Shown: positions 4,896 to 57,540 of the stretch, one piece after another
How the letters are laid out: each line of letters begins with the position of its first letter
Position numbering within the stretch: the first letter of the stretch is position 1
From: Astropecten irregularis
Lineage: Eukaryota > Echinodermata > Asteroidea > Paxillosida > Astropectinidae
Length of the DNA stretch: 64,000 nucleotides
Assembly: GCA_963971285.1 (NCBI GenBank)
Contig: OZ020262.1
Span: 5,179,036 to 5,243,035 of the forward strand
Direction: 5' to 3'
Program-made: the position numbers and the translations under genes
The notes under the pieces: model-generated
Told to the model about the DNA's origin: nothing
Database searches by the model: none
Seen by the model: only the letters and a program-made list of their open reading frames with translations

Positions 4896-4902
4896 GTGAG
4901 AG
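4896..4902. other. Target-site duplication, left flank of P element
   Basis: GTGAGAG lies directly outside the left terminal CATAGACC and is repeated exactly at 16413-16419 directly outside the right terminal GGTCTATG. P-superfamily elements typically leave about 8 bp; 7 bp are visible here. Confidence 0.88.
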
Positions 4903-4910
4903 CATAGACC

Positions 4911-5402
4911 AGGGGTGCGTTCCGCTTGCGCGAACATGTCTCAACGTTTGCGGCAACGTTTGCGTACAACCGGAACCGATTGTGAGCGCGCGTGGAACAC
5001 AACCGTAAAATGGCGGTGTCCAGTCGTAACCAAGATGGCGTCGAATGCCTGCAGCGTCCAAAATAATTGATGAAATTTCTGATAGTACTTGTACTGCAGC
5101 ATATCATTAAGTACCAATTATCTATGGTGCAATTTGTGAAGTACTTGATAAATTTTCAATCTTAAAAACTGCAGTTTTTACTTTCGTCACAAAAAAAATT
5201 ACGTCGTCTGCTTACCGTTCTGCCATCTTGGAAATATCGACCATTTTTAAATGACACGCGAACATTCGCGAACATCTCAGAAATATGTTCGCCGACTGTT
5301 GCTAACACCCGCCAACGTTAGCGGCGCACAAGTCGTTCCACCCGAAATTGTTTGCAAACGTTGGCAAACGGTGGCAACGTTCGCGCAAGCGGAACGCACC
5401 CC
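4911..5402. mobile_element. Inverted-repeat element inserted in the left P terminus
   Basis: AGGGGTGCGTTCCGCTTGCG at the left is perfectly inverted at the right (CGCAAGCGGAACGCACCCCT). Reading across the insertion, CATAGACC|TGGAGG reconstitutes the intact terminus seen at the right end of the P element, so this is a later insertion. The exact target duplication is ambiguous (CC, or CCAGG/CCTGG). Central sequence is non-coding; frames at 4688-5107 and 4697-5008 cross the junction and are spurious. Confidence 0.82.
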
Positions 5403-5472
5403 TGGAGGAAAAATCAATGGACTGCCAACTCCAGCGGGCGCGCTATCAATCGCGTACGCGATGTTCCGTCAA

Positions 5473-5510
5473 CCGGAAGTTCTAGAGTTACCGGCACAGA
5501 AGACTTCCGG
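5473..5510. promoter_or_regulatory. Paired CCGGAAGT motifs in left P subterminal repeat
   Basis: CCGGAAGT (5473-5480) and its inverse ACTTCCGG (5503-5510) bracket a TTACCGGCAC segment, 75 bp upstream of the left gene's ATG. The right terminus has CCGGAAGT at 16311, ACTTCCGA at 16333 and ACTTCCGG at 16341. The motif is an ETS-family core and could also be a THAP/transposase site; both readings are inference. Confidence 0.5.
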
Positions 5511-5585
5511 TTGACCTTTGAAGCGTTGACCTTATGTACGAATACGTCGATTAGGCATCGCAATCCCGTGAATTATCGTCACAAA

Positions 5586-8500
5586 ATGGACCACATAGAC
5601 AGCATACAAGTATGTTCAGACATGGTTTTATGAATACTAATAATAATGTGATTATTGTCAACAATTTGTGTAACACTTTTTAGGTTTTATTCACCTTTCT
5701 TGCATTGGATTTGTCTGCTAGTGAGTAGGCCTAGGCCTAACTAGTACTACTACTAGGCTACCTAACGTGTCGTTACTGACGTTAGTTATTACTTTAGGCC
5801 TAGGCCTACTTAGTACGAGCATGGAGGAAGGAAGACGAGTGGCGCCATTTTTTGAATTTAGTGTACGAATTTTATAACGTACGAGTACGATACGAATTGA
5901 ACATGTCGATTTGTGCATGGAGGTAGAAATAGAGATTTACCTCCATGATTTGTGTATGTCTACATTGACATTACAATTATTGTATGGACAAAACTTTCAA
6001 GAAAGATAGATTATTGTGTAACACTAGTAATGATACAATCATCTAAATAAATGATCGATCATCGAGTACTTGTTGTAGTGGAACTCGAACATTCACAGAG
6101 AATTGATTCAAGAACATGAAGAATGATCTATGTTAGAAATTTCCAGTCCCACATTACGGTGACGCACTGTCACTGCACTGACGTTGCCCACTTCAGGGCT
6201 GGAAATAAGGTTTTGTGAGGGCAAGGCCAATTTTCTATTGTAAGGGACACTTTCATTGGAAAATAATAATGTCTATGGAAACATTTGAAGGGGCACCAAG
6301 GCCAAGAACCAGGGCAACGAAGGCCATGGCCTCCGTGGCCTTTGTTTATTTCCAGCCCTGCCACTTATTGAGAAAATAAAGATTAAATGCCCATGATATT
6401 TAAAATCTTGACCGTAGAAGTTTTGTTGATTAGGCCTACTGTATGCAGCTGCAGTCAGATCTTTATGAATATAACAACTGATCAGTTACCAATGTTACTC
6501 GGGGAAATAAATGACAAATGCATCATCTTGTATTTTCAGGCAGAGATCAACGATGAGTTTCTGGCATGCCTAGATGAGCCTTGGCCTGAGGAGGAGCAAG
6601 CAAGCACTTCTGCCTCTGCAGATGCAGGGAACATTATTCAAGTTAGTGTGCTTGCCATTGTACTCTACTCTAAAAAGAATCCAAATCACAAAGCATAAAA
6701 ACAAATGAAGACATATTTACATTGCATGTGTATTTCCTTTTCATTTATTATATTTATATGACATAAGTGAACAAAGAAAAATTTACTAGAGCGGGATTCG
6801 AACCGGTGACCTCCTGAATATCGTACAGGCGCAGCGCAGCGCTCTACCAACTGAACTATCCAGCCCTATGTTGGTGATGTTCCCAATAGTCAATTATCTT
6901 TGGTTCGTTTGGCAGTCAGAAGCCGTATGCTCTTTGAGTGATCTCCCATGTACCATTCCCAGGTTGCAGCATTGCTGCGCGTATCGGTGAAATGATCCTT
7001 GGGATATGGCGGTGTGTGCATGGTTTCATGGCTTCTGACTGCCAAACGAACAAAGATAATTGACTATTTGGGACACCACCAATGTAGGGCTGGATGGCTC
7101 AGTTGGTAGAGCGCCTGTACGGTATTCAGGAGATTGCCGGTTCGAATCCCGCTCCAGTCAATTTTTCTTTGTTCACATTTCAATGACTTTAAATTCAGTC
7201 AGTTTCCCTTGTGGTTATTTGATGATAATATTTATAACAAGTAAACAATAACTTATAATAAACATAATTTTCAATATAAATTTTGTTTATAAATATATTA
7301 TGTATGAAATAAATTATGAGGTTTCATTTTAATCCTTTATACTGTGTTTTGTCCTCTTCAGTTGAATTTGTCCATATTGACAAAAGCCTTAGGTGGGATA
7401 AGTGAGGATGATGGTCTTCCAGAAGAAATGCGGAATAGAGCACTGTTCTTCCTCAAAAATGCAGCAGGTACCTATAAACATGTACACAATGCTATAAACT
7501 ACATGTAATGCATTTTGAAATTTAATTCAATTACTTCAAGGATTTATGAGGAAGATTCTACAGGCCTTCATTTTAATAAATATGAGGAGAGCTGCAAATC
7601 GCTCTCATTAAATCAACATAGGGCCTACTCGTACTAGTAAAAAAAAGAGAGCAATTTGATTTTTCTTAAGTTTTCACATCATGTGTCAGAAAAAGAGAAC
7701 ATTCAAAGTTGTGCTTGTCCTGTTGAAAAAGAATATAAACATATTACTTTAAGGATATTACTTAAACATTAAGGAGAGCAGAGGAGAGTGATCACTCTCA
7801 CTCTCCTTAAAAATCAAGGTTTGATTCTATACATGTAAATAATTTAACTTTTACATGTACATGTATACACTTTACAGTAATCCGAGCACATGCCGCCACA
7901 CGGTTTTGAATGGTGCCCTCTTTTGATTAAAACGAGAAATTGCGGTGATTTCAATAAAAGATTATTGGCGGTGTACAAAATAATATACTGACATCACCAC
8001 AGTTTCTTGTTTTAATCAAAAGAGGGCGCCTTTCGGATTACTGTATACACTGATCCGCCGGCGCGAACATGGAGGAAAAAACCACCCACCATTACTGGTG
8101 TGTCCCCGCCCATATTTTGTCCGGCAACAAAAACATTTACGTCCGCTGCACTCTATACTGCAGTGTACGTCCCCTAATCATGGGACGTACACCCTGTAAT
8201 TATGGAGTGCGGCGGAGCGTAAATTGTTTTGGTGCCGGACAAAAGGTAGGCAGGGACACACCAGTAATGGCGGACAGTATTTCGTGCCGTCAGATTGGTC
8301 TATACATGAAGTTGTTTGGATTCACATTGCCCTTTAATATCGAACAAATTGCATACTCTGTGCTTCCCTGAGGAACAATTTTAATGGTGTGCTAAGTGGG
8401 ATTCAAACTCACATTGAATTATCCTCTTTACTAGGTAGAATAACTTATTCTCTTTGAACAATAGTACACAGTGTGTATCAAATGTACTACTGTTCAAAAA

Positions 8501-9427
8501 GAATAAGTTATTGTACATAGCAATACTTGTAGGTTTGCACAGAAAATGCATTACATCTATCGTACAATCACAGATAATACATAGACTCTAACTATGTGAT
8601 AAGTAAAGGTATGATGGTTATGATTTTTCTTAGCTCAATCCAAACTCAGGACATCTTTGATATTTGTCGACAACTGCATCCACAAGAAAGGTGTTTTCAC
8701 ATCAGTTCAGCGCCAGACTTCTTTGCAGAATTTTTTTGCAAAACAAGTGGAAAACATGGCACTGATCACAGCCATTGTCAAGAATAAGCAGACTGCCGCA
8801 ATGATAAGTTCCTGTGTATTTGAGCAATTACTAAATGCCAACTTTGAGAGTAGGCATTTATCTCCTCATACATGTACAGAAGTAATAATATCTGAGGATG
8901 AACTAGAAATCATTCATTACATTGGTGGTAGCATTGTGAGGAAAGTACGTCAGAGAGCTATCAAAATGTCCAATCATGATGAGCGACGAAAAGTCACAGA
9001 AATGGTCAATGACATGGCTAGTCGCGATTCAACGGATCTCCAGCAGCAGGACATGATAGGTATCCTTAACCGAGGTGGGCTGAGCAGACCATGTCCAAAC
9101 ATGAAGTATGCATTCTGCGCAATGGAGGCCACATTCCGACGACTTTTCCCCATGAGTTCAACAACAATGAAAGAGGATGACTTCACAAGGGTCTGTCTGG
9201 AAGACGAACAAATAACATGTGGGTATTACGAATCAGTGTGTGAAGTTGAATGTGATGACCGGCTGAAAGAGAAAGTACTGAGAATCATTCTCAGTCTTTT
9301 TTTCAAAATAAGAAGTCATCACACCTGCCGCAAGATAATTGACAAACTTAAACATGACAAGAATGTGGCTGGTAAGGCTAAGAGTCTTCGGAAGACACTA
9401 AAACGAAGAAATGATGATGTAGAGTAG
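5586..9427 (+). CDS. Uncharacterised 341-aa protein carried by the P element (4 exons)
   Basis: Exons 5586-5609, 6540-6641, 7362-7467 and 8634-9427, each bounded by AG and GT (donors GTATGT, GTTAGT, GTACCT; acceptors TTTTCAG, CTTCAG, TCTTAG). Together they give one uninterrupted 341-aa frame beginning MDHIDSIQAEINDEFLACL. The start is the first ATG inside the left subterminal region and the only one that splices in frame. The N-terminal part is acidic with a Ser/Ala stretch. The last exon holds a folded-looking region with IIHYIGGSIVRKVRQRA and a later LNRGGLSRPCPNMKYAF segment, ending in a basic tail. I do not recognise a named family. The HYIGG...RGGL pattern recalls the C-terminal module of some THAP9/P-like transposases, so this may be a split-off partner of the transposase encoded opposite it. 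That is inference. Confidence 0.72.
6194..6360. mobile_element. hAT-like MITE (CAGGGCTGG ends) in intron 2... of the P left gene
   Basis: CAGGGCTGGAAATAA at the left is inverted at the right (TTATTTCCAGCCCTG). CCACTT is directly repeated at 6188-6193 and 6361-6366. It lies in the first intron (5610-6539) of the 341-aa gene. The interior (GGGCAAGGCC...GCCAAGAACCAGGGCAA) recurs without these ends at 9790-9945. Confidence 0.75.
6767..7176. repeat. tRNA-derived foldback repeat, copy 1
   Basis: Each end carries a tRNA-like segment in opposite orientation: minus strand about 6784-6866 and plus strand 7087-7160 (GGGCTGGATGGCTCAGTTGG ... GGTTCGAATCCCGCTCC). A-box-like GGCTCAGTTGG and B-box-like GGTTCGAATCC are clear. 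The anticodon arm is degenerate (C instead of T at position 33), so this is a tRNA-derived repeat rather than a working tRNA. The rest of the arms (CCAAACGAACAAAGATAATTG) also pair. Copies at 18389-20853 (interrupted), 21340-21720 and 30600-31000. It sits in intron 2 of the P left gene. Confidence 0.82.
7873..8045. mobile_element. MITE with TACAGTAATCCGA ends
   Basis: TACAGTAATCCGA and GAGGGCG/TTTTGATTAAAAC at the left are inverted at the right (GTTTTAATCAAAAGAGGGCG ... TCGGATTACTGTA). Lies in intron 3 of the P left gene. Confidence 0.75.
8085..8275. mobile_element. Foldback MITE with TTACTGGTGTGTCC arms
   Basis: ATTACTGGTGTGTCCCCGCC and TTGTCCGGCA at the left pair with TGCCGGACAA and GGGACACACCAGTAAT at the right. 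Its centre is a second palindrome (ACGTCCCC..ATGGGACGT). Intron 3 of the P left gene. The 100-codon frame at 8069-8371 is spurious. Confidence 0.7.
8437..8512. repeat. Short palindrome
   Basis: GAATAACTTATTCTCTTTGA and its near-complement TTCAAAAAGAATAAGTTATT flank a GTACACAGTGTGTATC loop; a small foldback in intron 3. Confidence 0.55.
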
Positions 9428-9493
9428 TGGCAGGCAAATCAGTTTGAACAGTTTCCACATTCAATTCTTTTTTTATGGTTATATACTAGTGCT

Positions 9494-9772
9494 TAAAGGT
9501 AATATCATAATTTGTTTTTTGTCAAAGAAGTACAGATTCATGGGCAAAAATATCAAGGAATATACAGTACCAGTCATCAGTCCACTTTTTAAGGAAACAG
9601 TGTGAAAAGTATTATCTCTTTTATTTTTGATCTTTTAAAGATCAAAAATAATTTTGGTCACTGGTTTTACTCTTTTCTGGATAAATACTGCATTTCAAGC
9701 AGAAAAATTTAACAGTATGTTTCTACCATCATGATCTTTATACCCTGTAAGTTATAGGTAAATCTGTGAAGA
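9494..9772. mobile_element. TTAA-type MITE family A, right-truncated copy
   Basis: Begins TTAAAGGTAATATCATA and carries the family hallmark palindrome TTGATCTTTTAAAGATCAAA and the segment TTATAGGTAAATCTGTGAA, then breaks off. It lies between the two convergent P-element genes. Confidence 0.65.
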
Positions 9773-9954
9773 CGAACAGAGCACCAAGTCTTGGTTCTGA
9801 AAAGGGCAAGGCCATTTTTCCAATGCAAGGGGCACTTCCATTGGGAAAATCATAATGTCTAAACATTTGAAGGGGGCATGAAGGCCAAGAACCAGGGCAA
9901 TGAAGGCTATGGCCTCCATGGCCTCCGTTAAATTCAAGGCTTGGAGCACACTGT

Positions 9955-10373
9955 TCGAAATGTTGACAAAATACCACTGGTTCTTCTCAGAACCACACAG
10001 TCACAGAAGAGATTACATGTACATATGGTGTCATCCATAGAGCTATATTAAAATTACTATAGCGCTAGGTCCGTGTTCTCCGCGCGTAGATGCTTTAAAG
10101 CTGTCCCGGGTGCAGTCATTTTGAATTTGAGTGCGTGTCTGTGGAACAAGAACACTTTGACTGGATTTCCGGCATATTTGGCTTCAATAACGCACCTGTA
10201 TAGAACACAACGCAGATATGCAAATGAACGTACAAAAAACGTACAAAATTGTGTGCTTTACATAGGTTTGTGCACAAACATGGATGCGCCCAGCAAGCAT
10301 CACTCTGTTCAAAGTGCTAGCGCTCTAGTAATTTTAATATAGCTCTATGGTGTCACCGCAAACCTACCTTATT
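9955..10373. repeat. Arm of a GGTGTCACC/AACCTACC foldback repeat, split by a MITE
   Basis: 9963-10033 (CACTGGTTCTTCTCAGAACC ... AGAGATTACATG) and 10351-10373 (TGTCACCGCAAACCTACCTT) are two halves of the same arm found complete at 57569-57781, with half copies at 20865-21035 and 27936-28085. The element at 10034-10350 separates them. The repeat border coincides with the transposase stop codon at 10374-10376. Confidence 0.7.
10034..10350. mobile_element. MITE with CCATAGAGCTATATT ends
   Basis: Left CCATAGAGCTATATTAAAAT and right ATTTTAATATAGCTCTATGG are perfect inverted repeats. TGTCA occurs directly outside both ends (10029-10033, 10351-10355), consistent with a 5-bp target duplication inside another repeat. 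A shorter copy lies at 48531-48660. Confidence 0.8.
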
Positions 10374-13300
10374 TTAGTCTTCATGTTCCTGATAACGCCT
10401 CTTCTTCAGTGGGCTTGTTGAAATGCGGATGACCTTATCCTGGGAACCAACGCATCTAACATTACCACGTGGCTTTAGTGCTATAGACAAGGAACGTTGC
10501 AATCGTATTCGATTTTCTTGGTACCTAAAGAAATTTTCCATGGCAAAAAAGAACATGTACATGTGGTGAATATTACTTAATCTGAGTTCATTTTAAAACT
10601 GCAGTAAACAGATAGTGCACTATTGTATAAGAGATGTTCATAGGATGAGTAAACATTAATTGTTCAATACATACCCAAAAGCCCAAAGGGTTGGGTTGTC
10701 ACTTCGACGTCCAAGTGATCTGTGCCGGCTGAAGTGTTCCTCAACTGGATCCTGGCAAAACTTATTTGTGTTCACATAAGTGACCCCTTGTTGCAGCAAG
10801 TAGCGTGTTGCTTCGATGGTTGAGTGGACTACATGTAATATGGGGACAGCAAAAATAACATGTTTTTTACAGTTAGTTGCTTGTTGTATTGTAAATAACT
10901 CTTAACAATATAAATCAGTACTGTGCCAGTTTCTCATTCAGTACCATTTTACATACATGTACTTAATTTGCTGAATTTCTATTGAATAAATGATAACCAA
11001 TGTGTCTTATGTCACTGAGAACTTTTAAGCAGAAACATGTATGTATTAAAGCAATTTACCTGTCATCCATAATCCTTCATATGTCTGTGATGACAAGAAC
11101 ATTTCATTCCGTTCACTCTTTGAAAGGTCTCCAGTCATGGTCATGACTCTGTCCCTCCAGCTCTCTATGTAACCCAAGAAGTCCTTGGAGAGATACTATA
11201 TGTAATTGTATTCAAAAAAAGAAGAAGATATTTTAGACTATACCTTTCATTATAAAGGCTATATTGAGCCATATCAGAGATGCAATTTTTTAGATGTTGA
11301 TTTAAAAATTCCCTTAAATGACTAGCTAGCTATTTAAGATTTTTTAGCATTGGCCCGTTGCATCTTTGTTTAATTTGTGTGATCAAAGAAAATAATTATA
11401 CAAAATCACACAAATGATAGCATATCTACATATTTATTCACCTGGAACCGCTGATCGTCAACCGATGTGTAGGGAAGTAACCATTCATTCCTTTTCCTAT
11501 GTCCCTCAACAATGGACCTGGTATTCAGACAGTCGAAGAACTTGTTCATTAAGAGGATGAACTTGGCAGTCTCTTTATTGTCTTTGCTCGAAGATGCCAT
11601 CATCAAACGCCCAACAGAATCACTGAGAACCTGTTGACACATATTAGAAAGACAAAAAAGTCTCCAATTATCTCAAAGGCTGTCCAGGTGTAAAAGTACT
11701 TTTTTCCAAAACTCAGAATGTGAAAGGAAACATTTCTCAAAAATTAACAAACCTGAGCTGCAAGTTTAACAGTCATTTTCGAATGTGGGGTCAGGTATAT
11801 GTGGTCATTCGTCAATTTAGTTTTGCGAAGAACAAGGCTGGCATCATGTTGATACATATCCTTGACATGGCTCCATAGTATGTGGCTACCATTCTACAAA
11901 TGAAAAAGCATAAAGAAATTGTACACAAAAGGATATCATTAGTAAATGCCAATGGCTTTCAAAATAAATTTCATACACTGTCACAACCCAGTCACAGATT
12001 TAGATATTAAATTCAAAACATGTGCATGGGAAGTAAACTGGGCTAAAATTGGTGCAACATGGCAAAGAAGAAAAATTAATCGGCAGAATGTATAATTTTT
12101 GAATGGGAGTTTCACACTGTGCATGGTACAGGATTTCAACTGCAGTTATACTCTTCTGGAGGACAACTGCCTTTAGTTAAACCAAGTAAAATGTCTGATC
12201 CCCAAATGTACTATGCCTTACCCACAAATACTTGGTGCCAGAGGTTGATGATGAGTAGAGGTTGTTTCTAACCGTTTTTACCAAATGAGGGGCATCGGAA
12301 AAAAAGTAGACATCTCTCTCGTCTTTGGCATACAAATTGGGTGCCTTGAAGCAGAGCTTGCCCTGGTTGTGCATCCGATAGAGTTTCTGGTTCTGAGAAG
12401 CTTTGTCACTAGTACTGGCGATGACCTGGAAATAAAACATTAATACATGTAGATATTGTTAAAAAGCACTAATATCATACAACTTGTACATTACATATTT
12501 CAATCAGCCAATGAATCTGCTCATTGACAATGATGGTAAGACACAAACTTATAAACCTACATACATGTATATTGTACAATAATCACCTTCAGATTACAAG
12601 ATATTTCCAGATAGGCAATGGCCTTCCACAATAGACTGAACAGTGCATCAGCTGTGGCGGTCTTGGTGGGGAAGAATCCCAAGCTCATCTTCAAGTGTGA
12701 TGAGACTCCTACGACAAAAAAGACAAGGACATGGGTAGCCACATTCTCACATGGATCATCCTTCACTTGCCACTCGTTGGGACGAACATATCCAACCAAT
12801 TCACCAGTAACACGGTCAAACACAAGGTCATTCTTCAAAGTCATCTCATCATGCAGAAGGACAACAAAGCGCTGGTGTGGACCGAGTCCTTTACAGGCAT
12901 CTTTGACCTCATCTAGAATGCTTGCATTAAAGCCAGCCTTGGGATGCACAACATTTGTATAGTCTCTGAGTGTTGACTCACATGGGAGTTTTATTACTGC
13001 AGTGTTACGCAGAGTTTCATAGGCACTCCTGCTTTGGGAATGCAGCAGAATTGCGAGCCGTACCATCATGGGATGCCAACGCATACCATTATTTGGCATT
13101 TGGAATGCCTTGCACTGCTGCTCCCAAAACAGCTTAATGAAATGGTCTTCTATCTTGGAAGAATTGGCATTGATTATACCGGTCAGCTCTTCATGTGTCT
13201 CCTCATTTACATGGAAAGCCTCAGCTTCCAAACGTTTCTCAATTTGAGAAACTTTGACCCGAAGCTCTTTCTCTTGCCTCCGAGCCTGTTGTAGGGCAAG

Positions 13301-16244
13301 GGCAACTTTTGATTGTGCCACTTTCTGCAGAGGAGTTTTTGGATGGAGAGTAACAGCTGATGCCAACCTTCTGGATCTCTTTCTCTGAAGAAGAGTAAGG
13401 ACACCGCGACACTTTGAGCACAGACTTGACTCTTTGTCATTACCTAACAAAAGGAGACACTTCTCCGACCTCACTGTCGATAGACATCCATTGGTAGACA
13501 AACACCGAACGTGCCGAAAATAAACACATCCAGCTCTTGGAAGCTCGGCATAGCTCTGTAATGATGAGTCTGTCACTCCTGGACAGATCGGTTGCTTTTC
13601 CAACTGAGTGACAAATTTCGACAATTTCGTCGTTTCCATGGATGCAGTCCTGTCAACCAGGAGCCCATAGGCATGTATGGTAGCACTTAAGTCGTTGGCT
13701 ATCTTCAAGTTGAGTTTAAAGCCCTCGGACGGTTGTTGTACATTGCTAAGAAGACCAATAGCAATATACTCTTCACAGTCTCCTGTCAGTAGCCACTGTG
13801 GTCCCAACTTTTGGGCTTCCCGTCGCACATCATTTAGATCCATGTGGGCCACCAATTTAGGGGAAGTCTGTAGAGGTGTCCGCACAACCTGAAGCAAAGG
13901 TGGGCAAGTACATGATGGATTGGACAAAATTTTAAATCTACATGTACAATTAAAAGCTACCATCCATAAAATACATGTGTAAATGTCATGTGTATATAGT
14001 TCAGAGTTTGTGGAACAAATTGAACTGACTGAAGTGTCCCAGTTTTTTTAAGAAAATATATCAAAAGTGGAAAGGTCATTTCAAAAGAACTTGTTTCAAA
14101 AATGGGAACTGTTTTTGGGTTTTTTTTTTTGCAGGATTATTTGAATTGTAAGTTATGTTTTTTCTATAGTCCATATGACACTAGAATTCAGATTTGAAAA
14201 AAAAATGGCTTAACAAATTTTACATGGACAATGTTGGAAGCTGTGACCTAAAATTCAAAGCAAAGATGTAATGTGAGTAACCGACAAATTACGGTATGCT
14301 TTCTTCGAATGAACGAGTTTCTTAGTTTTAAAATGTATTCTAAATAAAACCCAATGCAAAAACTAAACTTGTTCTTTTTATGTGACTGTTTAAAACTGTA
14401 TAACACTAGAAGGTGATGAAAACCTGTAATGTAAGTAACCATGCAATTGTAACTTGAGTAACAATTTATGTAACATGAGTAACCTGGATAACATGACTAA
14501 ATACAGCCACAACAATCAGAAAAGTACATGAAAAATGTAACATGAGTAACTGAAATTTCCCTGAAGTTAAATTTGAATAACTAGTGTAGAAAAGGTGGTT
14601 CTTTTTGTTTTGTTTGTTTGTATGATAAGGCAGTGCATCTGACAGTGGCAGCATTGGGTCTGTGGAGGTCTATTGATAGGTTTGCTTGAGGTCAAGTAAG
14701 GATGTGTTGAGATGTACATGTATGCTTCACTCCGAGGTTTGCACATGGGAGAGGAGAACCATCAAAATTGATGATCTGACAGTTGGCTTCCTTATTGTGG
14801 ATTGTGGATTGCTGTGACAGTACGTACAGTACGTGCAGTACTAGTAGCCATGCTCAGCTTCAGTCGCCAGGTTTTAAAGTAGTAGTACCCATGTAGGAAG
14901 TTGTTGGTTTGGGTAGCGCAATGATGGGAGCGTTCCACTCGTATCTTTAATTGCTGAGATAGCACTCGTAAGTAGAATTTCACAAGCCACCATCAACATT
15001 TTGGCTCCAGATGTAGCAAGAATGCAGGGAGAATGTTGTCATGTATAATGTTGAATGTATAGTGCAAGTATACAAACCAAAGGGTTAGAAGTGAACTGAA
15101 CATATCATAAACATGCATGCAATCAAGGTCATTCAAAGAAAGACCTTTTATTATTTATATAAAACTAACCATTCTTCTTCATAATAAATTTGCAAGGAAA
15201 TCGTAAAATTAGTCAGGATGGCTCTTTGAATAAACAAAAAAGATACAACGGGCTTAACATGTTGTAAACACAAAGCAAATACAGAGTAACATGAAATGTA
15301 AAAAAACATACATGATGTGTACTGGTACATGCTCAGAACAATGAGTAACAACAACTCAGGAATATGCAAATTGTAAAAAAAAAAATCCAATATTTCCAAA
15401 TACAAAATCATAAGTGAAAACAACTCAACATGTTTGACAAACTGAACATAGTTGACATTCTTACAGGTACTCGCTTTGATGGTTGTGAAGTAGGAACAGA
15501 GGATGTGGGCATGAATTCAGTGGGCAAACTACCCATTTTTAGAAATTTCTTTCCAGTTGCACCTGCACATATCAAAAAGACACATGACATAGATGTGTAT
15601 CATTGTATGTTATTGCAAAAAAAAATAAGGTCCGAATAATCTCTCTACCAAAGACATTATGACAGACCTGTAACGTTAGTTACCTGCTTCAATACCAGGC
15701 AAAAACCTACAATGAGTAACTTTGACCATACTACACGTATCTAGGTGTACTCTTGCATAGTGCCATATCCGATCTTAGACAGTGACCATCGCCCATCATG
15801 CCATGCCACTCCATGATGATTGTGATGTGTTGTGTTCCAACTTCCAAAACACTTTTATTATTTTCATTCTAAAAAAGCTTTAACACGTTCAGCAAATGTT
15901 CCAGAGCCTTTAGGGCTAGGTCATGAATCTGTTAATAGGCCTACGCATGAATATGGATTTCAACCCTATATCCACATGCCCGAAAATATTACCAACTCAC
16001 CTGTTAGAAAACATTCGTCCTTGAAATGCCTGGAACAGATTGTAGCAGTGTCGGGGTTGAACGACGAATCGCATCTGTTTATTTTTACAATCAAGCGCTG
16101 CCTCCATTCTTGCCGCTCTGCCTCGTCTGATCGCCGTCGTTTTTCTGAAGGATCCTGCCTCTTGGGCAATCCATGGAAGCTCAACCCCCTATTTCTCCCT
16201 TTGCAAGCACCACAACCAACAATAGCACAATTATCTCCAGGCAT
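10374..16244 (-). CDS. THAP-domain P-element-type transposase (THAP9-like), 872 aa, 9 exons
   Basis: Exons in coding order: 16001-16244, 15465-15562, 12587-13888, 12222-12425, 11753-11893, 11442-11630, 11060-11195, 10675-10828, 10374-10524. Every junction is AG/GT and the joined frame is open for 872 aa (human THAP9 is about 900). Residues 1 to about 95 form a THAP zinc finger: CAIVGCGAC, the FHGLP turn, a W in the helix, TICSRHF and, after the first intron, GSLPTEF in place of the usual AVPTIF box. Then follow a coiled region, the helix-turn-helix-like segment GMRWHPMMVRLAILL...STLRDYTN, and an RNase H-like core. Catalytic candidates are HDEM (about residue 472), FFSDAPHLVKTVRN (about 593) and CQDPVEEHF (about 798). 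Expected to cut and paste the surrounding element. Its ATG is 63 bp inside the right subterminal motifs. The C-terminus ends abruptly at a repeat border and could be shortened. Confidence 0.9.
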
Positions 16245-16310
16245 TTTGAAGCGAAACTACGCGCGCACTGCCACTGCACAATGTACGGTTGCTAAGTACA
16301 CACCGGCAAA

Positions 16311-16412
16311 CCGGAAGTTCTCTGTGCCGGTAACTTCCGAACTTCCGGTTGACGTAAGATGGAGCGCGCCCGCTGGAGTTGGCAGTCCATTGATTTTTCC
16401 TCCAGGTCTATG
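16311..16412. promoter_or_regulatory. Right P terminus acting as a possible divergent promoter
   Basis: This terminus lies between two divergent start codons, transposase at 16244 and COMMD2 at 16471 (227 bp apart). It holds CCGGAAGT (16311), ACTTCCGA (16333), ACTTCCGG (16341) and a GC-rich GGAGCGCGCCCGC stretch. No TATA box is seen. That it now serves COMMD2 is inference. Confidence 0.45.
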
Positions 16413-16419
16413 GTGAGAG
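16413..16419. other. Target-site duplication, right flank of P element
   Basis: GTGAGAG, identical to 4896-4902. It places the original insertion 51 bases upstream of the COMMD2 initiation codon, in its promoter or 5' UTR. Confidence 0.88.
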
Positions 16420-16470: not shown

Positions 16471-19400
16471 ATGTTGCTCGTTTTGGAGGATGAACACAAG
16501 GAGCACTTGAACTTTCTTGTTTCAGTAGATGTGGAAGGTAAGTGATGAAATTGCGGCAGATAAAACGGTGAAAGAGAACAACTTGCACTGCAAGATACAA
16601 GAACAACTGGACTAGACCATGTAGACCATTCATGAACACCTGGGGGCGCTTTTCTTGCCGACACTTGATTGTGGAGGGAGGGGGCGGGGCAGAGGTTTTG
16701 TTTACCACGTTAAATTTTAGTTTGCAATTTAGAAAGGAATAGTGCAATTAAACCCTTGTCCACAGTAGGCATTTTATTCTTAAGAAATGTCATGCCTATA
16801 ATTTTTTTTTATCAAAAGATCAAACGTTTAACCGTTAGGCCTATTTCTTTTTCTTTTTGCTGATGGCCGGATTAGAGAAAAGTGAAATCTGTCCGGGGGT
16901 CGATTTCACAAAGCCCTACGATTGATTGCATCTCAAATCTATTGGCCGATGGGGGATAACCCATCATAACCTAGTCCGAGTAACTTGGACCCTAAAAATC
17001 GCCTTTTTTAACATTTGGACATGGTCTGGCGATAGTAGGGTCCAAGTACCTTGTTTGCATTTTGGTTGCAAGAGCTCCATTTTGCAATGTTTTGCCTCTA
17101 CCCTGAGTCAAAATCCTGTGATTTCACCTCCAAAACGATCCCAAAATGTCTCATGCGGCCAGCTATGGACCAAGGGAGAATTGGAGATTCCGATAATGAC
17201 AAGGTTTACTCACATTTTTTGAAGAAAATATCGTTTTTCCCCTAAAAATGGGCACAGAGACCTCCTATAAAATGAGCACAGTGTCCGTTGGGTCGGCCAT
17301 CTTGGTTTTTCAAATTGTACAATGGTACCCGGAAAAAATTAGGGAAAATATGATCTTTTCTTAAAAAAATGTGAGTAAACCTTGTCATTATTGGAATCTC
17401 CAATTCTCCCTTGGCCCATAGCTGGCCCCATGAGACATTTTGGGATCGTTTTGAAGGTGAAATCAAAGGATTTTGACTCAGGGTAGAGGCAAAACATTGC
17501 AAAATGGAGCTCTTGCAACCAAAATGCAAACAAGGTACTTGGACCCTACTATCGCCAGATCATGTCCAAAATGTTTAAAAAGGCGATTTTTAGGGTCCAA
17601 GTTACTCGGACTAATCATAACCTACGTAGGGCTGCAATGTACGTATCACAAGTCTACTAAGTAAATTACGATGAGTTTGGTGAAATCGACCCCCCACCCT
17701 GGGTGGTTATGTGTGGTATTCTGGTTGTCTTGTGCAGTAGAGAATTGGGGTTAATGTTAGGCAGAGTTTATTTTGCCATTCTTCATGAAAGTGCTATTTT
17801 GCTGTCCCTTACTATGATTGGCCAATTTGCAGTATTTGAAATCAACGTACATGTATCTCAGGCAAAATAACTTGAAATACATTTTTTTTAAAGGAGGATG
17901 GCATGATGTTGACCAATCAAATTGGTATAATTGCTTCTTTAATATTACTTGGTGGTGACAGTGTCACAGTGGATTAGAAGTGATATGACATTTGCATTAA
18001 TTTGTGTTTGAATCCCAGCCGAACCAGCGCATGATTTGTTCATGTGCACTCAAAGCATTGAGCGTGTAATGCTGATACAACAAGTTCGTGAAGTGTAATC
18101 CTAATACAAATAGTAAACTGCTGCCAACTCATCAACCAAAAATATTCCTGAAATATCTAAATTGTTGGAGTTAGGAGAACTTGATTTCAATCCTAGCAGG
18201 ATCTTTCTCAAAGGATAATGATTAACACAGATTGATGACTTCTTATTCTTCCAGTTGTGCAGGAGTTTTGCCGCATCGCCATGGAGTTCATCAGGAAAGG
18301 CATCAACTACAAGATGTACCTGATAGCAGCTCGTAAGTAATGCATGCACTAACTTGTGAAAGCTGTATTAATAATAATAAGTAATTGAAAAGTGAACAAA
18401 GACAAATTTACTGGAGCGGGATTCGAACCGGCGACCTCCTGAATACCGTACAGGCGCTCTACCCACTGAGCCATCCAGCCCTACGTTTTTATTTATTAAA
18501 AAGCCGTATCACTTTGAGTGATCCCCCATGTGCGGTTCCCAGGTTGCAGCATTGCTGCGTGTATCATTGAAATGATCCTTGGGGTATGGCGGTGTGTGCT
18601 TGGTTTCATGGCTTCTGATAGTTGCGATGATCGTAACCCTAGGTCTGACATGGGGACTGGGACCTTAGGGTTACGACAAAACTGGATAAAAAAATGGGTA
18701 CGACCTTTTTGGCCAACTCCTGAAGTACGTTTCCACTTAGTTTTCCACTTTCCAAAATCCAAACACAAAATCTGACTACATGGATCTGATTGGTACTTAT
18801 CAATGAGTCATATAAAACCACTTTGAATATCGAAAGATCATTATATTAAGAAAAAATGACCAAAAACTTACCGAAGGTGTCGAGATTCCCTCCGTTTGCT
18901 GTCAGTCGGCCATTTTGAATAGTGCGCAGTGTGCCATCTCGACCAAATCACGTCATGCGAAATGCCGTTTTGGCTGTTCCACCATTCAAACTCAAACTCA
19001 CAGCCCTATGGAGGGTGTTCCCAGAATAACACGTGCGCTGTGATATACCGTGTACACGCATATCGTATACAGTATGGAGGAGGGTTTTTTTTAAGTCCGC
19101 ATAATTGTTTGCCCATGTCAAGCTGCTGCTGACAATTCAAATCTTTCATCATGAACTGAAGGAAATTGCTAAGATTTTCAAATGATTTCCTTTACGAATG
19201 GTCCCACAAACAGACAAAATGTTAGCAAGTCACAATTCGGTGCCGACCCAATCCATGATCAAACAGAAATAAAAAGGTCATCCACCTCATCACAGATCGC
19301 GCAGGGGTCGAAATTAACGCTGGACTAAAAAATCTATCCGGTCATCAATTACACCAAAAATGATCATACCCGGTAGGACAGTGGGGACATTCCTAAAAAT

Positions 19401-22400
19401 ATCACCGGAATATTCCACTGCGGAAAAACCACAATCACTGCAAATCTGTAGTTCTGTACCGAGCCGGCCGCGGCTGTGAGCCACCGTCCGTATACGGTAA
19501 CGAGCCCGGCCGCGATCCAAAAAGGTACCGACCGAGCGCAACATACACTTCAATTTCAAGTCCACGGCGAAATCTGTACCGAGCCGGCCGGCCGTGAGCC
19601 ACCGTCCGTAACGGTGGAACGAACCCGGCCGCGATCCAAAAAGATACCTTCCGACCGAGCGCAATTATACACTTCATTTCAAGCACATGGCACGTGTGTA
19701 ACGTACTGATTGAGACTTTCGCTGGTGCACGTACACAATGTACGTTAACTACGTTTGCTTTGAAACTGTGGCTATTACGCACGCGGATACCAGGCTGTCT
19801 TTATCTGCGGTGTGGGCAATGTTTTTACGTCTTAATTTTTTAATGCGATAGTCGATCGGTTTCGGAAGGATTTCAGTAATTTCACGATAATTTTTTTAGA
19901 TTCAGTATAATTATGAAGAGAGTGTTTCTACTTGGCCAATTGAACAAAAATAACTGAGTGAAATTCAAGTAAGATTTATAAGCTGATCAGCCTACGATTT
20001 ACGGTACTTTGGAAGGACGGTCGATCAGAATATTTTTTATTTAGATCTCGCAACGATATAACGCATATACATATCGTGTATAATACACCATTTCTTTCTC
20101 CATGAATCGTATTTTCGCATGTGTTGGATGTCGGAAAAAATCACGCCGTATACGTTTTCTTCACCTGTCATATCAGAAGAGCGGCGGAAAATAAACTTAA
20201 TTCGGCAGTTTCGGCACACGGGTCTGGTCAATTCAATAACCACACAGTCCACACGCTCACACACTGTATGCCGTGTATAGCACTGTACAACGCACGTGAT
20301 ACGAGCCCTCCATAGGGCTGCGAGTTTGAGTTTGAAAGGTGGAACAGCCAAAACGGCATTTCACGTGACGTAATTTGGTCGAGGTGGCACACTGCGCACT
20401 ATTCAAAATGGCCGACTGACGGCAAACGGAGGGAATCTCGACACCTTCGGTAAGTTTTGGGTCATTTTTTCTGAACTTAATGATCTTTCGATATTCAAAG
20501 TGGTTTTATATGACTCATTGATAAGTACCAATCAGATCCATGTAGTCAGATTTTGTGTTTGGATTTTGGAAAGTGGAAAACTAAGTGGAAACGTACTTCA
20601 GGAGTTGGCCAAAAAGGTCGTACCCATTTTTGTTATCCAGTTTTGTCGTAACCCTAAGGTCCCAGTCCCCATGTCAGACCTAGGGTTACGATCATCGCAA
20701 CTAGGCTTCTGACTGCCAAACGAACAAAGATAATTGACTATTGGGGTCACCACCAATGTAGGGCTGGATAGCTCAGTTGGCAGAGCGCCTGTACGGTATT
20801 CAGGAGGTCGCCGGTTCGAATCCCGCTCCCGTCAATTTTTCTTTGTTCACTTTTTAAGGCAAATAATAGGTAGCATTTGAAGCTTTGCATGGTGGAAGTA
20901 ACGTAATAGAGGAGGTTTGCGGAGACACCATGTATAAACTCTTTCATAGATGTGTGGTTCTGAAAAACAACCGGTGAGAAAAGTCTCGACGTTCCGGCCA
21001 GTGTACTCTGGCTGTCCTCAGGTGAGTGAGTGCCGTGAAGCGAGAAGACCTGTCAGTCTATAGGTTTTTTATGTCTAGAGGGTGGCAACACACAAAGCAA
21101 TCTCTACCCAGAAGGCAAGTCTAAGTAACTTGAGGAACAGTTGCCCAAATTGTTGATTTAAGTAATGTTTTGTTTTTTTGTTTGACAGAGAAGCTGGGTG
21201 TAGATGCAGAGGCTGTGCAGCATGTCGTTGAAGGACTCATGTATCTACTTACTGAAAGTGCTAAATTAATGGTAAGAATACAATAAATCAGAATACTGTA
21301 TTATAAGCATCAAATAAACCTCAAGGGAATTTGATTATACTGCCATATCCCAAGGATCATTTTAATAGTGATACTTACAGCAATGCTACAACCTGAGAAA
21401 TGGTGCACGGGGGATCACTCAAAGAGGATGCGGCTTTTTGATCAATATTATCATCCAATAACCACAAGGAAACTGACTGGATTTAAAGTCATTGAAAAGT
21501 GAACAAAGAAAAATTTACCGGAGCAGGATTCGAACCTGCGACCCTGGAATACCGTACAGCATCTACAGGGGATCTACCAACTGAGCTAGCCAACCTTATG
21601 TTGATGGTGTCCCTAATTGTCAATTATTTTTGTTCATTTGGCAGTTAGAAGCTATGAAACCACGCACATATCGCTATATCCCAAGGATCATTTTATCGAT
21701 ACACACAGCAATGCTGCAACCTGAGAAAGAGTACAACATTCTTAACATGAAAGATTTTGTCTCATTGCCAAGGTGACAGAGATCGACTTCCAGGACTCCA
21801 TCTTGACTCTGGGCTTCTCCGAAGAACTCAAGCAGGCACTCCTGCAGTTGTACCTCGACAACCGGAAGGAGATTCGAATGATCCAATCAGAGATGGCCAT
21901 GGACCTACCTCATTACCATAATCTGGAGTGGCGTCTCGACATTGAGGTAAGTGGCTTAAACTTACCCCCGTTTCAGACAGGCGTTCTAGCATCGTGCCAA
22001 ACTAAATAAACCCCTCAAAAGAAGGTCTGCAACTCAAGTTTGAGGGATGATATTGTTTTTATTACTGATCTATGAACGGTTAAACTGGTATCATTGAAAA
22101 GATTCATTATTCTTCTTTACAATGATGTGCCAAATGATATTTACATATCATTTGTCATTTGCATTGAGTTCGGCTCATGACTAGAGCGACGTCTGAAAGG
22201 ACTCGCTCTAGCGCCATTCTGAACGACCCAGACTGTCGATCTGTCGGCATCAGGCGCGCCTGGTCGCTCCTAACTGTTTCCAGCGTTGAACTTTCCATGT
22301 ACTTCATTCAAATCTTGCCTTTTAATTGGGCTCTGCGCTTGAGCTATTTATAGAATACGCCCTTTGTTATCGACAGCTATAGTTCCCCGGATGTTCAGAC

Positions 22401-27559: not shown

Positions 27560-28837
27560 TTAAAAATAATGCCATGTATGTAATATCCATGTTGCTTGTA
27601 CAGATAGATTGATAGATAGATGGATTTTTTAAAACAAAGAACTTCAAGTTCAAAAATATTATATGCATTCTAAAAACGTGTGTATTTATTATCTTATAAT
27701 TCAAGCAATTATTCTATTGGCTAATTGGGTAATGACTTATTTCAGTCCATTTTGTTTTGGATATGTTCATTACTTAATCACTATCATTCATGATAAACCT
27801 CTAAATGATAAATTTGACAAATTTTGGGAAAATACATATTGGACAGCCATTCAGATCTCAATTTGAATACAGGTATAGCCCCGTTGAACAATCAAATTCA
27901 AACATTTCAAATAATTGTAAATGAGACTTGAAGCTATGCATGGTGGAAGTACTATAAGAAAGAAGGTAGGTTTGCAGTGACACCATGTAATCTCTTCTGT
28001 GAGAGTGTGTGGTTCTGAGAAGAACCGTTGGTATAATCTCGACGTTCCGAAAAGTGTGCTCTGTTCGTCCTCAGGAGAGTGACTGGTTCAAATAATTGTG
28101 CAAGCTGTCCATGGTATGTATACTCGACAAAACAAAATAATGTAAAGTAATCTTTACTACCATTTGCTATTCTTGCAAAATAGGTACCTTTATCAAAATA
28201 GACATAAACTCCTCTTAGGAATGATCAATTTGTTTCATTCTTTTTTCTAATAAGCATAAGAGAATGCTTGTTAAATATAATTATGCTTTACTGAACTTTT
28301 GAGTGTCATTTGTTTCTTTTAAAAAACATCACCAATCCTGGTCAACTTCTTTTTGACTCACCCTGTACATGCACACTGCATACAAAACAGTCATTACGCA
28401 TTTATGCTACACGATTCGCTTTTTAAGCACAACACCACTTATTTTATAAGTACTGATTTTCGTTTGTATTAAAAATTAATAATCATTAAATTTCTTAAAT
28501 AATCAACCAGTTATCAGGTTATTATCATTAAGTGCAACTGAAAAATCATTGGTAGCAAAATACATTGTAAAATATTTCTGTAAATTACAGCATTAAAATA
28601 AATATTGTAATAAAAAAGAAATAATATTTCGTAATCATTCAATGATTCATTAAAAAATGACTTGTCCTTTATAAGGCTCAAGAATCACGACACATCAGAA
28701 AAAGTTTTAAAAATCATTATTTCCTATTTAATGGTTTTTTTTAGTGACCTACGGTATTTCTAATGGCAAATGGGAAAAAGCTTTTGATCTATCATTTAAT
28801 TTTGATAATAAATATCCTCCAGAAATGTCATACAATT
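27560..28837. other. AT-rich spacer with one half foldback repeat
   Basis: No exon is supportable. 27936-28085 is one arm of the foldback family also at 57541-57781. The rest is AT-rich, unique-looking sequence. Confidence 0.45.
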
Positions 28838-48530: not shown

Positions 48531-48660
48531 AGAGCTATATTAAAATTAAATGTACACAATGTTGGGCTTTCCATAGGTTTGTGCACAAACATGAATGCGC
48601 CCAGCAGGCATCACTTTTTACACGGAGCTAGCGCTCTAGTAATTTTTAATATAGCTCTAT
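48531..48660. mobile_element. Short copy of the CATAGAGCTATATT MITE
   Basis: AGAGCTATATTAAAATTA and TAATTTTTAATATAGCTCT ends; interior TAGGTTTGTGCACAAACATG matches 10262-10282. Confidence 0.8.
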
Positions 48661-48724
48661 GTGTAGATGTAACAATGTGACAGCTTTACGCGCACAATAA
48701 TATAATTATTGAAGTAACTCATAT

Positions 48725-53454: not shown

Positions 53455-54027
53455 AAAGCAAGACTATCACTAGCCACTTCCTCTCACGAAATAAAGTAAC
53501 TTGTTACATTCCGATTCTGTCTTTATATTACTATATCAGGAAAATATACAATAATCTGCGATGACGGACTCGGGGCCAATTTGAGTAAATTGCGGCGGCA
53601 TGGCCTTTCATCTTACGGTGATTTAGAGGCCAGTCCAAAAATGGACCCAGTATATAATCACGGACCGTACACATAGAGCATCTTCACGTAGAGTAAACAT
53701 CTCCGAAGTTGAGCTGCGAGCTGTTTAGTACCGCAATCAATCACTGCGGTCGTTTTCTTCGGGCGTCACGGATGAACTCGCCGTGGCGCTGCCGCTGAAG
53801 TGCCCGGTCGGAGTACCCGTTGGGCCCGGCTGTGGAGAGAGGGACAGAAGGGGGGACTGTGGATACACTTCGATCGCTAAATTAACTTATAGGTCTCCCA
53901 GCCGTCTGCTGATGAGAGGCGATCTTCAAAGACCTAGGGCCTCTTGCCGCTATGAACTTGATGCAATTATCCAGCATCGCCTTGTCATTATGATATTCTT
54001 CCGGCCCAAATCAATATCCATATACCC
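53455..54027. other. Spacer before the Harbinger element
   Basis: Moderately GC-rich, unique-looking; the 135-codon plus frame 53783-54190 runs into the Harbinger terminus and is spurious. Confidence 0.35.
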
Positions 54028-54063
54028 CTGCAGTCGATTTCACAAAGCTCTTCTTAACTTACG

Positions 54064-54120
54064 AGGCGTCGCAGAGTTAAGACGCATCGCATCTCTGCGA
54101 CGCGTCGCAGCTACGACGCG
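54064..54120. promoter_or_regulatory. Left subterminal ACGACGCGTC repeats
   Basis: GGCGTCGCAG, GACGCATCGC, GCGACGCGTCGCAG and TACGACGCGTCC are crowded within 60 bp. Likely binding sites for the Myb-like protein or transposase (inference from other Harbingers). Confidence 0.5.
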
Positions 54121-54579
54121 TCCTGCGATTCATTTCACCAAACACATCGTAGGGGCGATGCGTAGAATATCCAATTACATTCACTTATAGTTTTTGCTCG
54201 AGCCTAATTTTGTATGCTTCTGTGACTGTTTCCTGCTTCAATGTATCGGGTCAAGTAATAGCCGTCGGACACGCGCGCCTTACAAGAAAGAAGTTGATGA
54301 TTGGAAGAAGAATGACGGCCAACTTTCTGGAAACTGCGATGTCGTCTGCTTTGGTAAGTAATTGGTTGCTATGAGAGTAAAATCTTCCCAATTTTGTCTC
54401 AGTGAGTCGTAGACATATTTGAACGAAGAAATAAACGAGTGGGGAAAATAGAAATCAATTGCAGAGTAAGAGAAATTTATACACGGTCTAAATTACACAA
54501 CGTAGGCCTACATCGTGTGTACATTACGTACGTAGGCTACTTTACGCCTTACGGCGAAGAAAGGCGGCGAATAATCATA

Positions 54580-56553: not shown

Positions 56554-56836
56554 ATAATTATTTTATGATTCAAACAAAAGTCTAATCACAATCTTAAGGG
56601 TCAAGCTGCATTGAGCAAATATTTTCAGTGTAATTTCTAAAGAATTTTTAAATCAAAAATAATTTCATCCTGATTTTGATTAAAAGATGCACTGCCTGTA
56701 CTATATCTGACTCAATGATTAAAGGGTGACATGGATTTAATTATTGTATATTTGCTTCTTTCACCACACAGATTAACATAATTCATACTTCTTGTTTTAG
56801 TGATGTAAATATATCAAGTTGTTCAGAATCTAAGCC

Positions 56837-56842
56837 AATAAA
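56837..56842 (+). terminator. Candidate polyadenylation signal of the Myb-like gene
   Basis: AATAAA 284 bp past the stop; a second at 56945. Confidence 0.4.
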
Positions 56843-57221
56843 TCATTTTTAATTGTATTATGTATAACATGTTCTTAAAAAGTAATTTATACTACAGTTC
56901 TAATATTTGTTATTGGTTTTTACCCAACTGAAATGTGAAGCAAGAAATAAATGAGACATTTCATATTTGAAATTAATGAAACAAATTGAGAAAGATTAAA
57001 TGTGTTATTATTACATGGGAGTTCTTAATTGTCTTTAAACCCCTATCATCCCAGCCCATCATAAGTTACTAGTTTCGTCCATATAACGTATCTAAAAACA
57101 TCCCACTTATATGTCAGTTCCCATTGAAAAAACAAATTTTAACCCTTGTTATTAGTATTTTTTTCATCGCGGGGATAGAATTATGCAAATTATTTATTAC
57201 CCTTCACCGACATATATGAGC

Positions 57222-57385: not shown

Positions 57386-57540
57386 TAATTTGCATAAATA
57401 AATTATTTATGCAAATTATGTACATGTAGTATAACCCATTGACCTATGGAAGCAATGAAATCAGCATTTTTTTTGGGGGGGGGAGGGCTTATTGTATTTA
57501 TATTATGGTATACCGATAGTTTTCTTAAATAAGGCTTGAA

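What the first reader, a model, noticed from the sequence alone, without database searches (positions are those of the whole stretch)
4903..16412. Intact 11.5-kb P-superfamily transposon carrying two convergent genes
Seen: matching terminal inverted repeats CATAGACC.../...GGTCTATG, a 7-bp direct repeat GTGAGAG immediately outside, a 9-exon 872-aa THAP/P transposase and a 4-exon 341-aa second gene, both fully open. Known: canonical P elements encode a single transposase gene and are about 3 kb. The two-gene convergent layout resembles Harbinger and Kolobok elements rather than P. I do not know of a described P element of this form, so it is my best candidate for a new system.
Basis: partly seen in the sequence, partly recalled or inferred. 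Interest (0 to 1): 0.92.

Follow-up and report, generated by a model that had tools for sequence, protein, structure and literature searches.

The report
Two-gene P-type jumping gene
This stretch is a P-type transposon from an animal-like genome that seems to carry a second gene beside its transposase, perhaps supplying a missing part of the enzyme, although one of its ends has since been split by another insertion.

Summary
The element at 4903-16412 is real. The outer 7-bp duplication plus 8-bp inverted ends is not rare in 64 kb. What carries the case is a TIR of about 104 bp, 44 bp of it perfect, that resumes beyond a roughly 490-bp insertion lying 8 bp inside the left end. So the copy is not intact.

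The right gene (9 exons, 872 aa) is a P-superfamily transposase: THAP, RNase H and GTP-binding domains, all three catalytic acids. The left gene (4 exons, 341 aa) is open and coding-like, with no Pfam or PDB relative found. Each ATG lies within 75 bp of a TIR edge, which ties the left gene to the element.

The transposase ends 71 residues after its catalytic Glu; fly and human proteins align at least 145 and 163 residues further. My leading mechanism is a transposase divided over two genes. No other copy could be examined. I rate it a new variant of a known kind.

The parts
4896..4902 (.). target site duplication, left copy GTGAGAG
   Evidence: identical to 16413-16419. The next 3 bases outside (AGC / GCT) are also complementary, a weak hint of a palindromic target
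4903..4910 (+). outermost 8 bp of left TIR, CATAGACC
4911..5402 (.). nested inverted-repeat (MITE-like) insertion splitting the left TIR; boundaries uncertain by a few bases. Read with a 5-bp duplication it would be CCAGG 4909-4913 / CCTGG 5401-5405 (one mismatch) around 4914-5400
   Evidence: 27-nt perfect arms 4909-4935 / 5379-5405; arms of about 60 nt at 85%; the uninterrupted right end reads CATAGACCTGGAGG
5403..5512 (+). remainder of left TIR, with the motif ACCGGAAGT at 5472 (+) and, reversed, from 5511 (-)
5586..9427 (+). left (second) gene: exons 5586-5609, 6540-6641, 7362-7467, 8634-9427; 341 aa
   Evidence: all introns GT-AG; codon-position asymmetry exceeded by 7 of 3000 non-exonic segments; no Pfam or PDB relative
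10374..16244 (-). right gene, P-superfamily transposase: exons 16244-16001, 15562-15465, 13888-12587, 12425-12222, 11893-11753, 11630-11442, 11195-11060, 10828-10675, 10524-10374; 872 aa
   Evidence: THAP, TNP-like RNaseH_N and GBD above Pfam cut-offs; 6p5a E 4.6e-15
16309..16412 (-). right TIR, uninterrupted, with the same ACCGGAAGT motif at 16310 (+) and, reversed, from 16349 (-)
16413..16419 (.). target site duplication, right copy GTGAGAG
6765..7183 (.). tRNA-Thr-derived foldback repeat in intron 2 of the left gene (nested, probably not part of the ancestral element)
9490..9770 (.). dispersed repeat between the two genes, with 7 near-full-length and further partial matches in this window (nested)
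10027..10357 (.). MITE-like repeat between the two genes, 34-nt arms at 97%, related stretch at 48548-48661 (nested)

Best explanation
It is a P-superfamily cut-and-paste DNA transposon with two convergent genes between TIRs of about 104 bp. Shown: P-type transposase domains with DDE residues, TIRs, a 7-bp duplication, two open spliced reading frames that start just inside opposite TIRs, and an insertion that splits the left TIR. Inferred: each TIR carries the promoter of the gene beside it; the right gene's protein binds the TIRs, cuts and joins; the left gene's protein is an accessory subunit of the same transpososome, most likely doing the work of the C-terminal domain that the transposase lacks. 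This copy can probably make both proteins but, with its left end split, is probably no longer efficiently mobile.
For: Right protein: THAP 1.3e-8, TNP-like RNaseH_N 3.4e-26, GBD 1.2e-17; Drosophila P transposase 6p5a 4.6e-15 over residues 357-833. D461, D555 and E801 align with D230, D303 and E531 of the fly protein (fly and human catalytic residues from PMC8230255, passages). DxxH at 592-595.

Ends: 44-bp perfect plus 61-bp 82% TIR, 7-bp duplication. Zebrafish Pdre2 ends also begin CATA (PMC10983969, passages) and Galileo makes 7-bp duplications (PMC4168063, passages).

Left gene: stop-free 263-codon stretch in exon 4, chance about 5e-7 per start at the window's stop frequency; codon-position asymmetry exceeded by 15 of 3000 (exon 4) and 7 of 3000 (whole CDS) segments. 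Its ATG is 74 bp inside the left TIR edge and the right gene's ATG 65 bp inside the right one (coordinates).

Missing C-terminal part: 71 residues follow E801, while fly and human proteins are aligned in the paper to residues 676 and 776, i.e. 145 and 163 beyond their catalytic Glu (PMC8230255 table). [quoted passage not shown] The left protein has 14 K/R in its last 40 residues.
Against: Only one copy was seen, so purifying selection and joint mobility are untested. The left protein has no detectable relative: Pfam at E up to 10 gave only sub-threshold unrelated hits and PDB gave only two chance-level hits (E 0.43 and 0.89). Its structure model was useless (mean pLDDT 38.4). Codon preference trained on the right gene is only weakly positive for the left gene (89 of 2000 null segments score as high). 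At least one of 200 shuffles of the element held an ORF of 290 codons, so exon 4's length alone is not conclusive. Exons 2-4 of the left gene lie between two direct copies of a repeat of about 140 bp (6218-6355 and 9803-9938, 84% identical), which could point to a captured or composite stretch. RNaseH_C and the HTH model are below Pfam cut-offs. The fly CTD is described as acidic overall, whereas the left exon-4 product is basic (pI 9.1). No promoter, transcript or protein interaction was tested.
Confidence: 0.58

Rival explanations
1. The left gene is a passenger: a host gene captured between the TIRs, with no role in transposition.
For: No similarity to any transposon protein family was detected; four exons with long introns look like a host gene; exons 2-4 lie between two direct repeats.
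Against: It begins 74 bp inside the left TIR in the mirror image of the transposase gene. The transposase has introns too, and lacks the C-terminal part that a second protein could supply.
Confidence: 0.15
2. The left gene belongs to another transposon inserted inside a single-gene P element, or the whole is a composite of nested elements.
For: The region is full of nested repeats (2,149 element bases match elsewhere in the window or element), one of them inside the left TIR. Exons 2-4 of the left gene are flanked by direct copies of a repeat of about 140 bp (6218-6355, 9803-9938, 84%), and three weak inverted pairs (71-78%) have arms outside exon 2 or inside its intron and beyond or near exon 4.
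Against: None of the 25 listed of 89 inverted pairs encloses the whole left gene without the right one; no left exon matches another repeat in the window (exon 1 is too short to tell).
Confidence: 0.12
3. A domesticated gene pair: both genes are kept by the host and the element no longer moves.
For: Left end split; only 9 of 2,149 repeat bases are exonic although 31.7% of the element is exonic, as if insertions into exons had been removed by selection.
Against: Both TIRs and the duplication are still recognisable, pointing to a fairly recent insertion. A transposon that still moved would also keep its exons clean.
Confidence: 0.08
4. The left reading frame is not a gene; the element is a P element with one gene and long non-coding flanks.
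For: Shuffles reached an ORF of 290 codons; codon preference only weakly positive; exons 1-3 alone show no clear asymmetry (exceeded by 135 of 3000); no relatives.
Against: Codon-position asymmetry of the CDS exceeded by 7 of 3000 and a stop-free stretch with chance about 5e-7 per start; four exons in one frame with GT-AG introns.
Confidence: 0.07

Closest known systems
P elements of Drosophila and THAP9/Pdre2 of zebrafish (P superfamily)
   Same: THAP, RNase H with GTP-binding insertion, DDE residues, DxxH; ends beginning CATA in Pdre2
   Different: Those are described with one transposase gene (in the fly, alternative splicing gives an 87-kDa transposase and a 66-kDa repressor) whose product includes a C-terminal domain, 13-31 bp TIRs, 8-bp duplications and 2.9 kb in the fly (PMC7776569 and PMC10983969, passages). 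Here: a second convergent gene, a transposase without the C-terminal part, a TIR of about 104 bp, a 7-bp duplication, 9-11.5 kb
Galileo (P superfamily, Drosophila)
   Same: 7-bp target duplications, long TIRs (PMC4168063, passages)
   Different: No second gene appeared in the passages seen; Galileo TIRs can exceed 1.5 kb
Kolobok, Kol0 lineage with KolX
   Same: DDE transposase plus a second protein
   Different: Kolobok makes TTAA duplications and has 5'-RR ends (PMC9587614, Background section). Here GTGAGAG and CA ends. KolX resembles the P2X7 ballast domain (passage); the left protein gave no such Pfam match
RAG-like transposons (RAG1L/RAG2L)
   Same: Two convergent genes, catalytic subunit plus partner, between TIRs
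   Different: 5-bp duplications, CACT-type ends in the protostome consensus (PMC7204232, passages); unrelated catalytic family by the Pfam matches here
Harbinger
   Same: Two-gene layout (recalled for the family); a Harbinger-like convergent pair lies in this same window (54406-59188)
   Different: DDE_Tnp_4 plus Myb/SANT protein, not a P-type transposase

Membership tests
P superfamily | N-terminal THAP zinc domain | tested here: met
   Pfam THAP 35.9 bits against cut-off 23.9; Cys/His at 6, 11, 70, 73 (from the motif positions; that these are the zinc ligands is recalled)
[quoted passage not shown]
   PF21787 92.6 bits, PF21788 64.9 bits, both above cut-off; PF21789 17.0 bits, below its cut-off of 24; the 6p5a alignment runs through the last part
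P superfamily | DDE triad equivalent to D230, D303, E531 | tested here: met
   D461, D555, E801 (reference residues from PMC8230255)
P superfamily | Helix-turn-helix domain after the THAP and coiled-coil region | tested here: inconclusive
   PF12017 15.2 bits against cut-off 23 at residues 368-422; the phmmer alignment to the fly protein covers that stretch
P superfamily | C-terminal domain in the transposase | tested here: not met
   Only 71 residues after E801; fly and human are aligned at least 145 and 163 residues beyond. Not treated as excluding membership, since the catalytic core is unambiguous
P superfamily | 7-8 bp target duplication and inverted ends beginning CA | tested here: met
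   GTGAGAG, CATAGACC; 7-bp in Galileo, CATA in Pdre2
P superfamily | One transposase gene per element (as described in the passages read) | tested here: not met
   A second spliced reading frame of 341 aa between the TIRs
Kolobok | TTAA duplication and 5'-RR ends | tested here: not met
   GTGAGAG and CATAGACC
Harbinger | DDE_Tnp_4 transposase and Myb-like second protein | tested here: not met
   Neither in the Pfam results for the two proteins
RAG-like transposon | 5-bp duplication, CAC-type ends, RAG1L/RAG2L genes | tested here: not met
   no RAG family in Pfam results
P superfamily | Mobility: several copies with the same ends | not testable with these tools
   No genome held for this window; no second copy in the window

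The most novel reading that the evidence does not exclude
A split P transposase: the catalytic THAP-RNase H-GBD protein and its C-terminal, DNA-contacting domain are made by two separate convergent genes, each driven from one TIR, so that transposition needs both, as with RAG1 and RAG2. The left protein carries YIGGSIVRK (from 173) and, after a gap of 42 residues, RGGLSRP (from 224); neither pattern is in the right protein. A pattern of this kind near the C-terminus of single-gene P/THAP9-like proteins is my recollection only; no tool tested it.
Probability: 0.35. Interest if true: 0.75.

Novelty: new variant of a known kind. Interest (0 to 1): 0.55.

Why it matters
Transposons that need a catalytic protein and a separate partner are instructive; RAG1/RAG2 is thought to descend from one (PMC7204232 abstract). 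A P-type element with its transposase divided over two genes would give a separable handle on the C-terminal domain, which in the fly enzyme contacts the transposon strand and the target, and a natural off-switch: copies that lose one gene become dependent on others. If the left gene is only a passenger, the element is still a long-TIR P element with a 7-bp duplication, which is of modest interest.

Tried and rejected
Relatives: left protein in viral contigs and genome contigs, right protein in viral contigs, two-row alignment of the catalytic core in viral contigs and genome contigs. Pattern matches were 0, 21, 1, 79 and 124 in that order, and 0 relatives were confirmed in 5 of 5 scans. These collections are viral and prokaryotic, so this says little. 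Structure of left exon 4 (263 aa, single sequence): mean pLDDT 38.4, so I did not run a fold search on it. Pfam on four pieces of the left protein: only sub-threshold hits (RNA_pol_Rpb1_3 at E 0.046 and 0.12, DUF7924 at 0.09, YbjQ_3 at 2), rejected as chance.

Considered and rejected: that CATAGACC...GGTCTATG plus GTGAGAG proves the element by itself (6 such pairs in the window); that the nested insertion is a hAT with its usual 8-bp duplication (the 8 bp on either side of a CAGGGG-type end do not match, read; the hAT rule is recalled); that the left gene is a Harbinger Myb protein or KolX (no Pfam match). A first splice choice for the right gene gave stops and was replaced (mended). Paper searches returned 0 papers; one search listed irrelevant papers; others listed none on a two-gene P element as far as titles and starts of abstracts show; 16, 40 and 51 were background searches. 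All 10 were used. Repbase is not in the library, so absence from print is not shown.

The null segments left out the first 1,300 bases, the two genes' exons, N runs, five tandem-repeat or Harbinger stretches; those left out only the first 1,300 bases, exons and N runs. For the right CDS (2,619 nt) the null segments were 1,023 nt long.

I did not establish the host. On checking I added. They showed the 9-base exonic repeat overlap and brought out the direct repeats around left exons 2-4, already; for the latter I moved the best explanation from 0.60 to 0.58 and the composite rival from 0.10 to 0.12.
Full report
The observation. The window holds GTGAGAG at 4896-4902 and 16413-16419, directly outside CATAGACC (4903-4910) and GGTCTATG (16405-16412). 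Taken alone this is weak: with the same criteria (7-bp direct repeat, 8-bp perfect inverted repeat, 0.5-20 kb apart) the window from base 1301 holds 6 pairs, this one included, and 20 order-2 Markov shuffles hold 0 to 7. A 44-nt perfect inverted repeat joins 5401-5444 to 16363-16406 and a further 61-nt one at 82% joins 5452-5512 to 16309-16369. On the right it runs straight into the terminus. On the left it is separated from CATAGACC by a roughly 490-bp insertion that has its own perfect 27-nt inverted arms (4909-4935 / 5379-5405). The right end reads CATAGACCTGGAGG, so the left end probably once read the same before the insertion (alignment). The insertion's own duplication is uncertain: CCAGG/CCTGG with one mismatch is possible.

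So the element is a real transposon insertion with TIRs of about 104 bp and a 7-bp duplication, but this copy is not intact. Nested repeats also lie in introns and between the genes. Nine stretches that I listed by hand, the TIR insertion included, total 2,236 bp, overlap no exon and leave about 9.3 kb (stretches). A systematic recount by blastn of the element against the window gives 2,149 matching bases, of which 9 are exonic: the match at 10347-10382 covers the last 9 bases of the right gene, stop codon included, so that end of the reading frame may have been shaped by a repeat. Exons 2-4 of the left gene lie between two direct copies (84%) of a repeat of about 140 bp at 6218-6355 and 9803-9938; this speaks a little for a composite origin.

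The right gene. Nine exons on the minus strand give 872 aa with one terminal stop and GT-AG introns throughout. Pfam: THAP (E 1.3e-8), TNP-like RNaseH_N (3.4e-26), TNP-like GBD (1.2e-17); RNaseH_C (0.0062) and HTH (0.03) are below their cut-offs. The best PDB match is Drosophila P transposase 6p5a, E 4.6e-15, residues 357-833. In the pairwise alignment D461, D555 and E801 fall on D230, D303 and E531; those are the residues shown by mutation to matter in the fly protein, with equivalents in human THAP9 (PMC8230255, passages). [quoted passage not shown]

The left gene. Four exons on the plus strand give 341 aa. Exon 4 alone has 263 stop-free codons, chance about 5e-7 per start at the window's stop frequency; the other five frames of that stretch hold 9 to 24 stops; codon-position asymmetry is exceeded by 15 of 3000 non-exonic segments for exon 4 and 7 of 3000 for the CDS. 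Against this: the right gene's own CDS is exceeded by 101 of 3000, so the statistic is not decisive for a true gene, and exons 1-3 of the left gene alone by 135 of 3000; codon preference trained on the right gene is matched by 89 of 2000 segments; and the largest ORF in 200 order-3 shuffles of the element was 290 codons, the median of the maxima 141. I regard it as probably a gene. No relative was found in Pfam or the PDB.

Do the two genes belong together? The left ATG (5586) lies 74 bp beyond the inner TIR edge (5512) and the right ATG (16244) 65 bp beyond the other (16309). Each TIR carries ACCGGAAGT twice in opposite directions (5472, 5511; 16310, 16349), and these are all 4 occurrences of that 9-mer in the window. 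That it resembles an ETS-type promoter site is recalled, not tested. The mirror-image layout argues for two genes each started from a TIR, and against a random capture.

How it probably works. The transposase core implies THAP binding at the ends, GTP-assisted pairing, and DDE cleavage and joining; this is inference from the fly enzyme. The right protein ends 71 residues after its catalytic Glu. Fly and human proteins are aligned to residues 676 and 776, i.e. 145 and 163 beyond (PMC8230255 table of aligned residues). [quoted passage not shown] A domain of that sort could be supplied in trans. The left protein has a basic end (14 K/R, 5 D/E in the last 40 residues), an acidic start (16 D/E, 4 K/R in the first 80), and the motifs YIGGSIVRK and RGGLSRP, patterns that the right protein lacks. 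I recall similar motifs near the C-termini of one-gene P/THAP9-like proteins; this is a lead, not a test. Against it, the fly domain is called acidic while the left exon-4 product has pI 9.1. The single-sequence model of exon 4 is unusable (pLDDT 38.4), so the idea rests on length, layout and recall.

Known relatives. Galileo shows that 7-bp duplications and long TIRs occur in the P superfamily (PMC4168063, passages); zebrafish Pdre2 shows CATA ends with 8-bp duplications (PMC10983969, passages). RAG-like transposons are the nearest in layout: two convergent genes between TIRs (PMC7204232, abstract and passages). Kolobok lineages carry various accessory proteins (PMC9587614, Background section and passages). 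A Harbinger-like pair lies 38 kb away in the same window. A sea cucumber preprint reports THAP9-like genes of 819 and 828 aa (PMC13228809, passages); no second gene appears in the passages seen. None of these is a two-gene P element. Seven of my ten paper searches bore on that question: three returned nothing and the listings of the other four show none by title or start of abstract. Repbase was not available, so I cannot say it is undescribed.

Limits. One copy, unnamed host, no relatives within reach. Mobility, transcription, selection and cooperation of the two proteins are all untested.

Noticed in passing
54406-54879 (+) and 58664-59188 (-): A Harbinger-like two-gene convergent pair: Myb/SANT domain (E 1.6e-10) and DDE_Tnp_4 (E 3.6e-13). 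The 25 listed of 36 inverted pairs in 53500-60500 include only weak ones (71-79%) that enclose both.
   Followed up: partly
4911-5402: Inverted-repeat element of about 490 bp inserted 8 bp inside a P-type terminus, possibly with a CCWGG duplication; its superfamily is unresolved.
   Followed up: partly
9974-10019 (+), 27987-28031 (-), 57591-57635 (-): Histone 3' UTR stem-loop matches (RF00032) inside copies of a dispersed repeat: 37.2 and 34.5 bits, above the cut-off of 34, at the last two, and 30.3 bits, below it, at 9974, on the coding strand about 550 bases downstream of the left gene's stop. No AATAAA was found on that strand at 9400-10420. Probably repeat-derived, but a histone-type 3' end for the left gene is not excluded.
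   Followed up: partly
10347-10382: A stretch similar to the repeat around 57554-57793 overlaps the last 9 bases and stop codon of the transposase gene; the first part of that repeat is at 9944-10019 and the MITE-like repeat 10027-10357 seems to sit inside it.
   Followed up: partly
6218-6355 and 9803-9938: Direct copies (84%) of a repeat of about 140 bp flank exons 2-4 of the left gene.
   Followed up: partly
7088-7160, 18408-18480, 20762-20834: tRNA-Thr (GGT) predictions inside related repeats, i.e. tRNA-derived repeats that score as full tRNAs.
   Followed up: no
9490-9770 and places between 29009 and 60045: A dispersed repeat of about 280 bp: 7 near-full-length and further partial matches in the window, about 70-84% identical for matches over 50 bp.
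   Followed up: no
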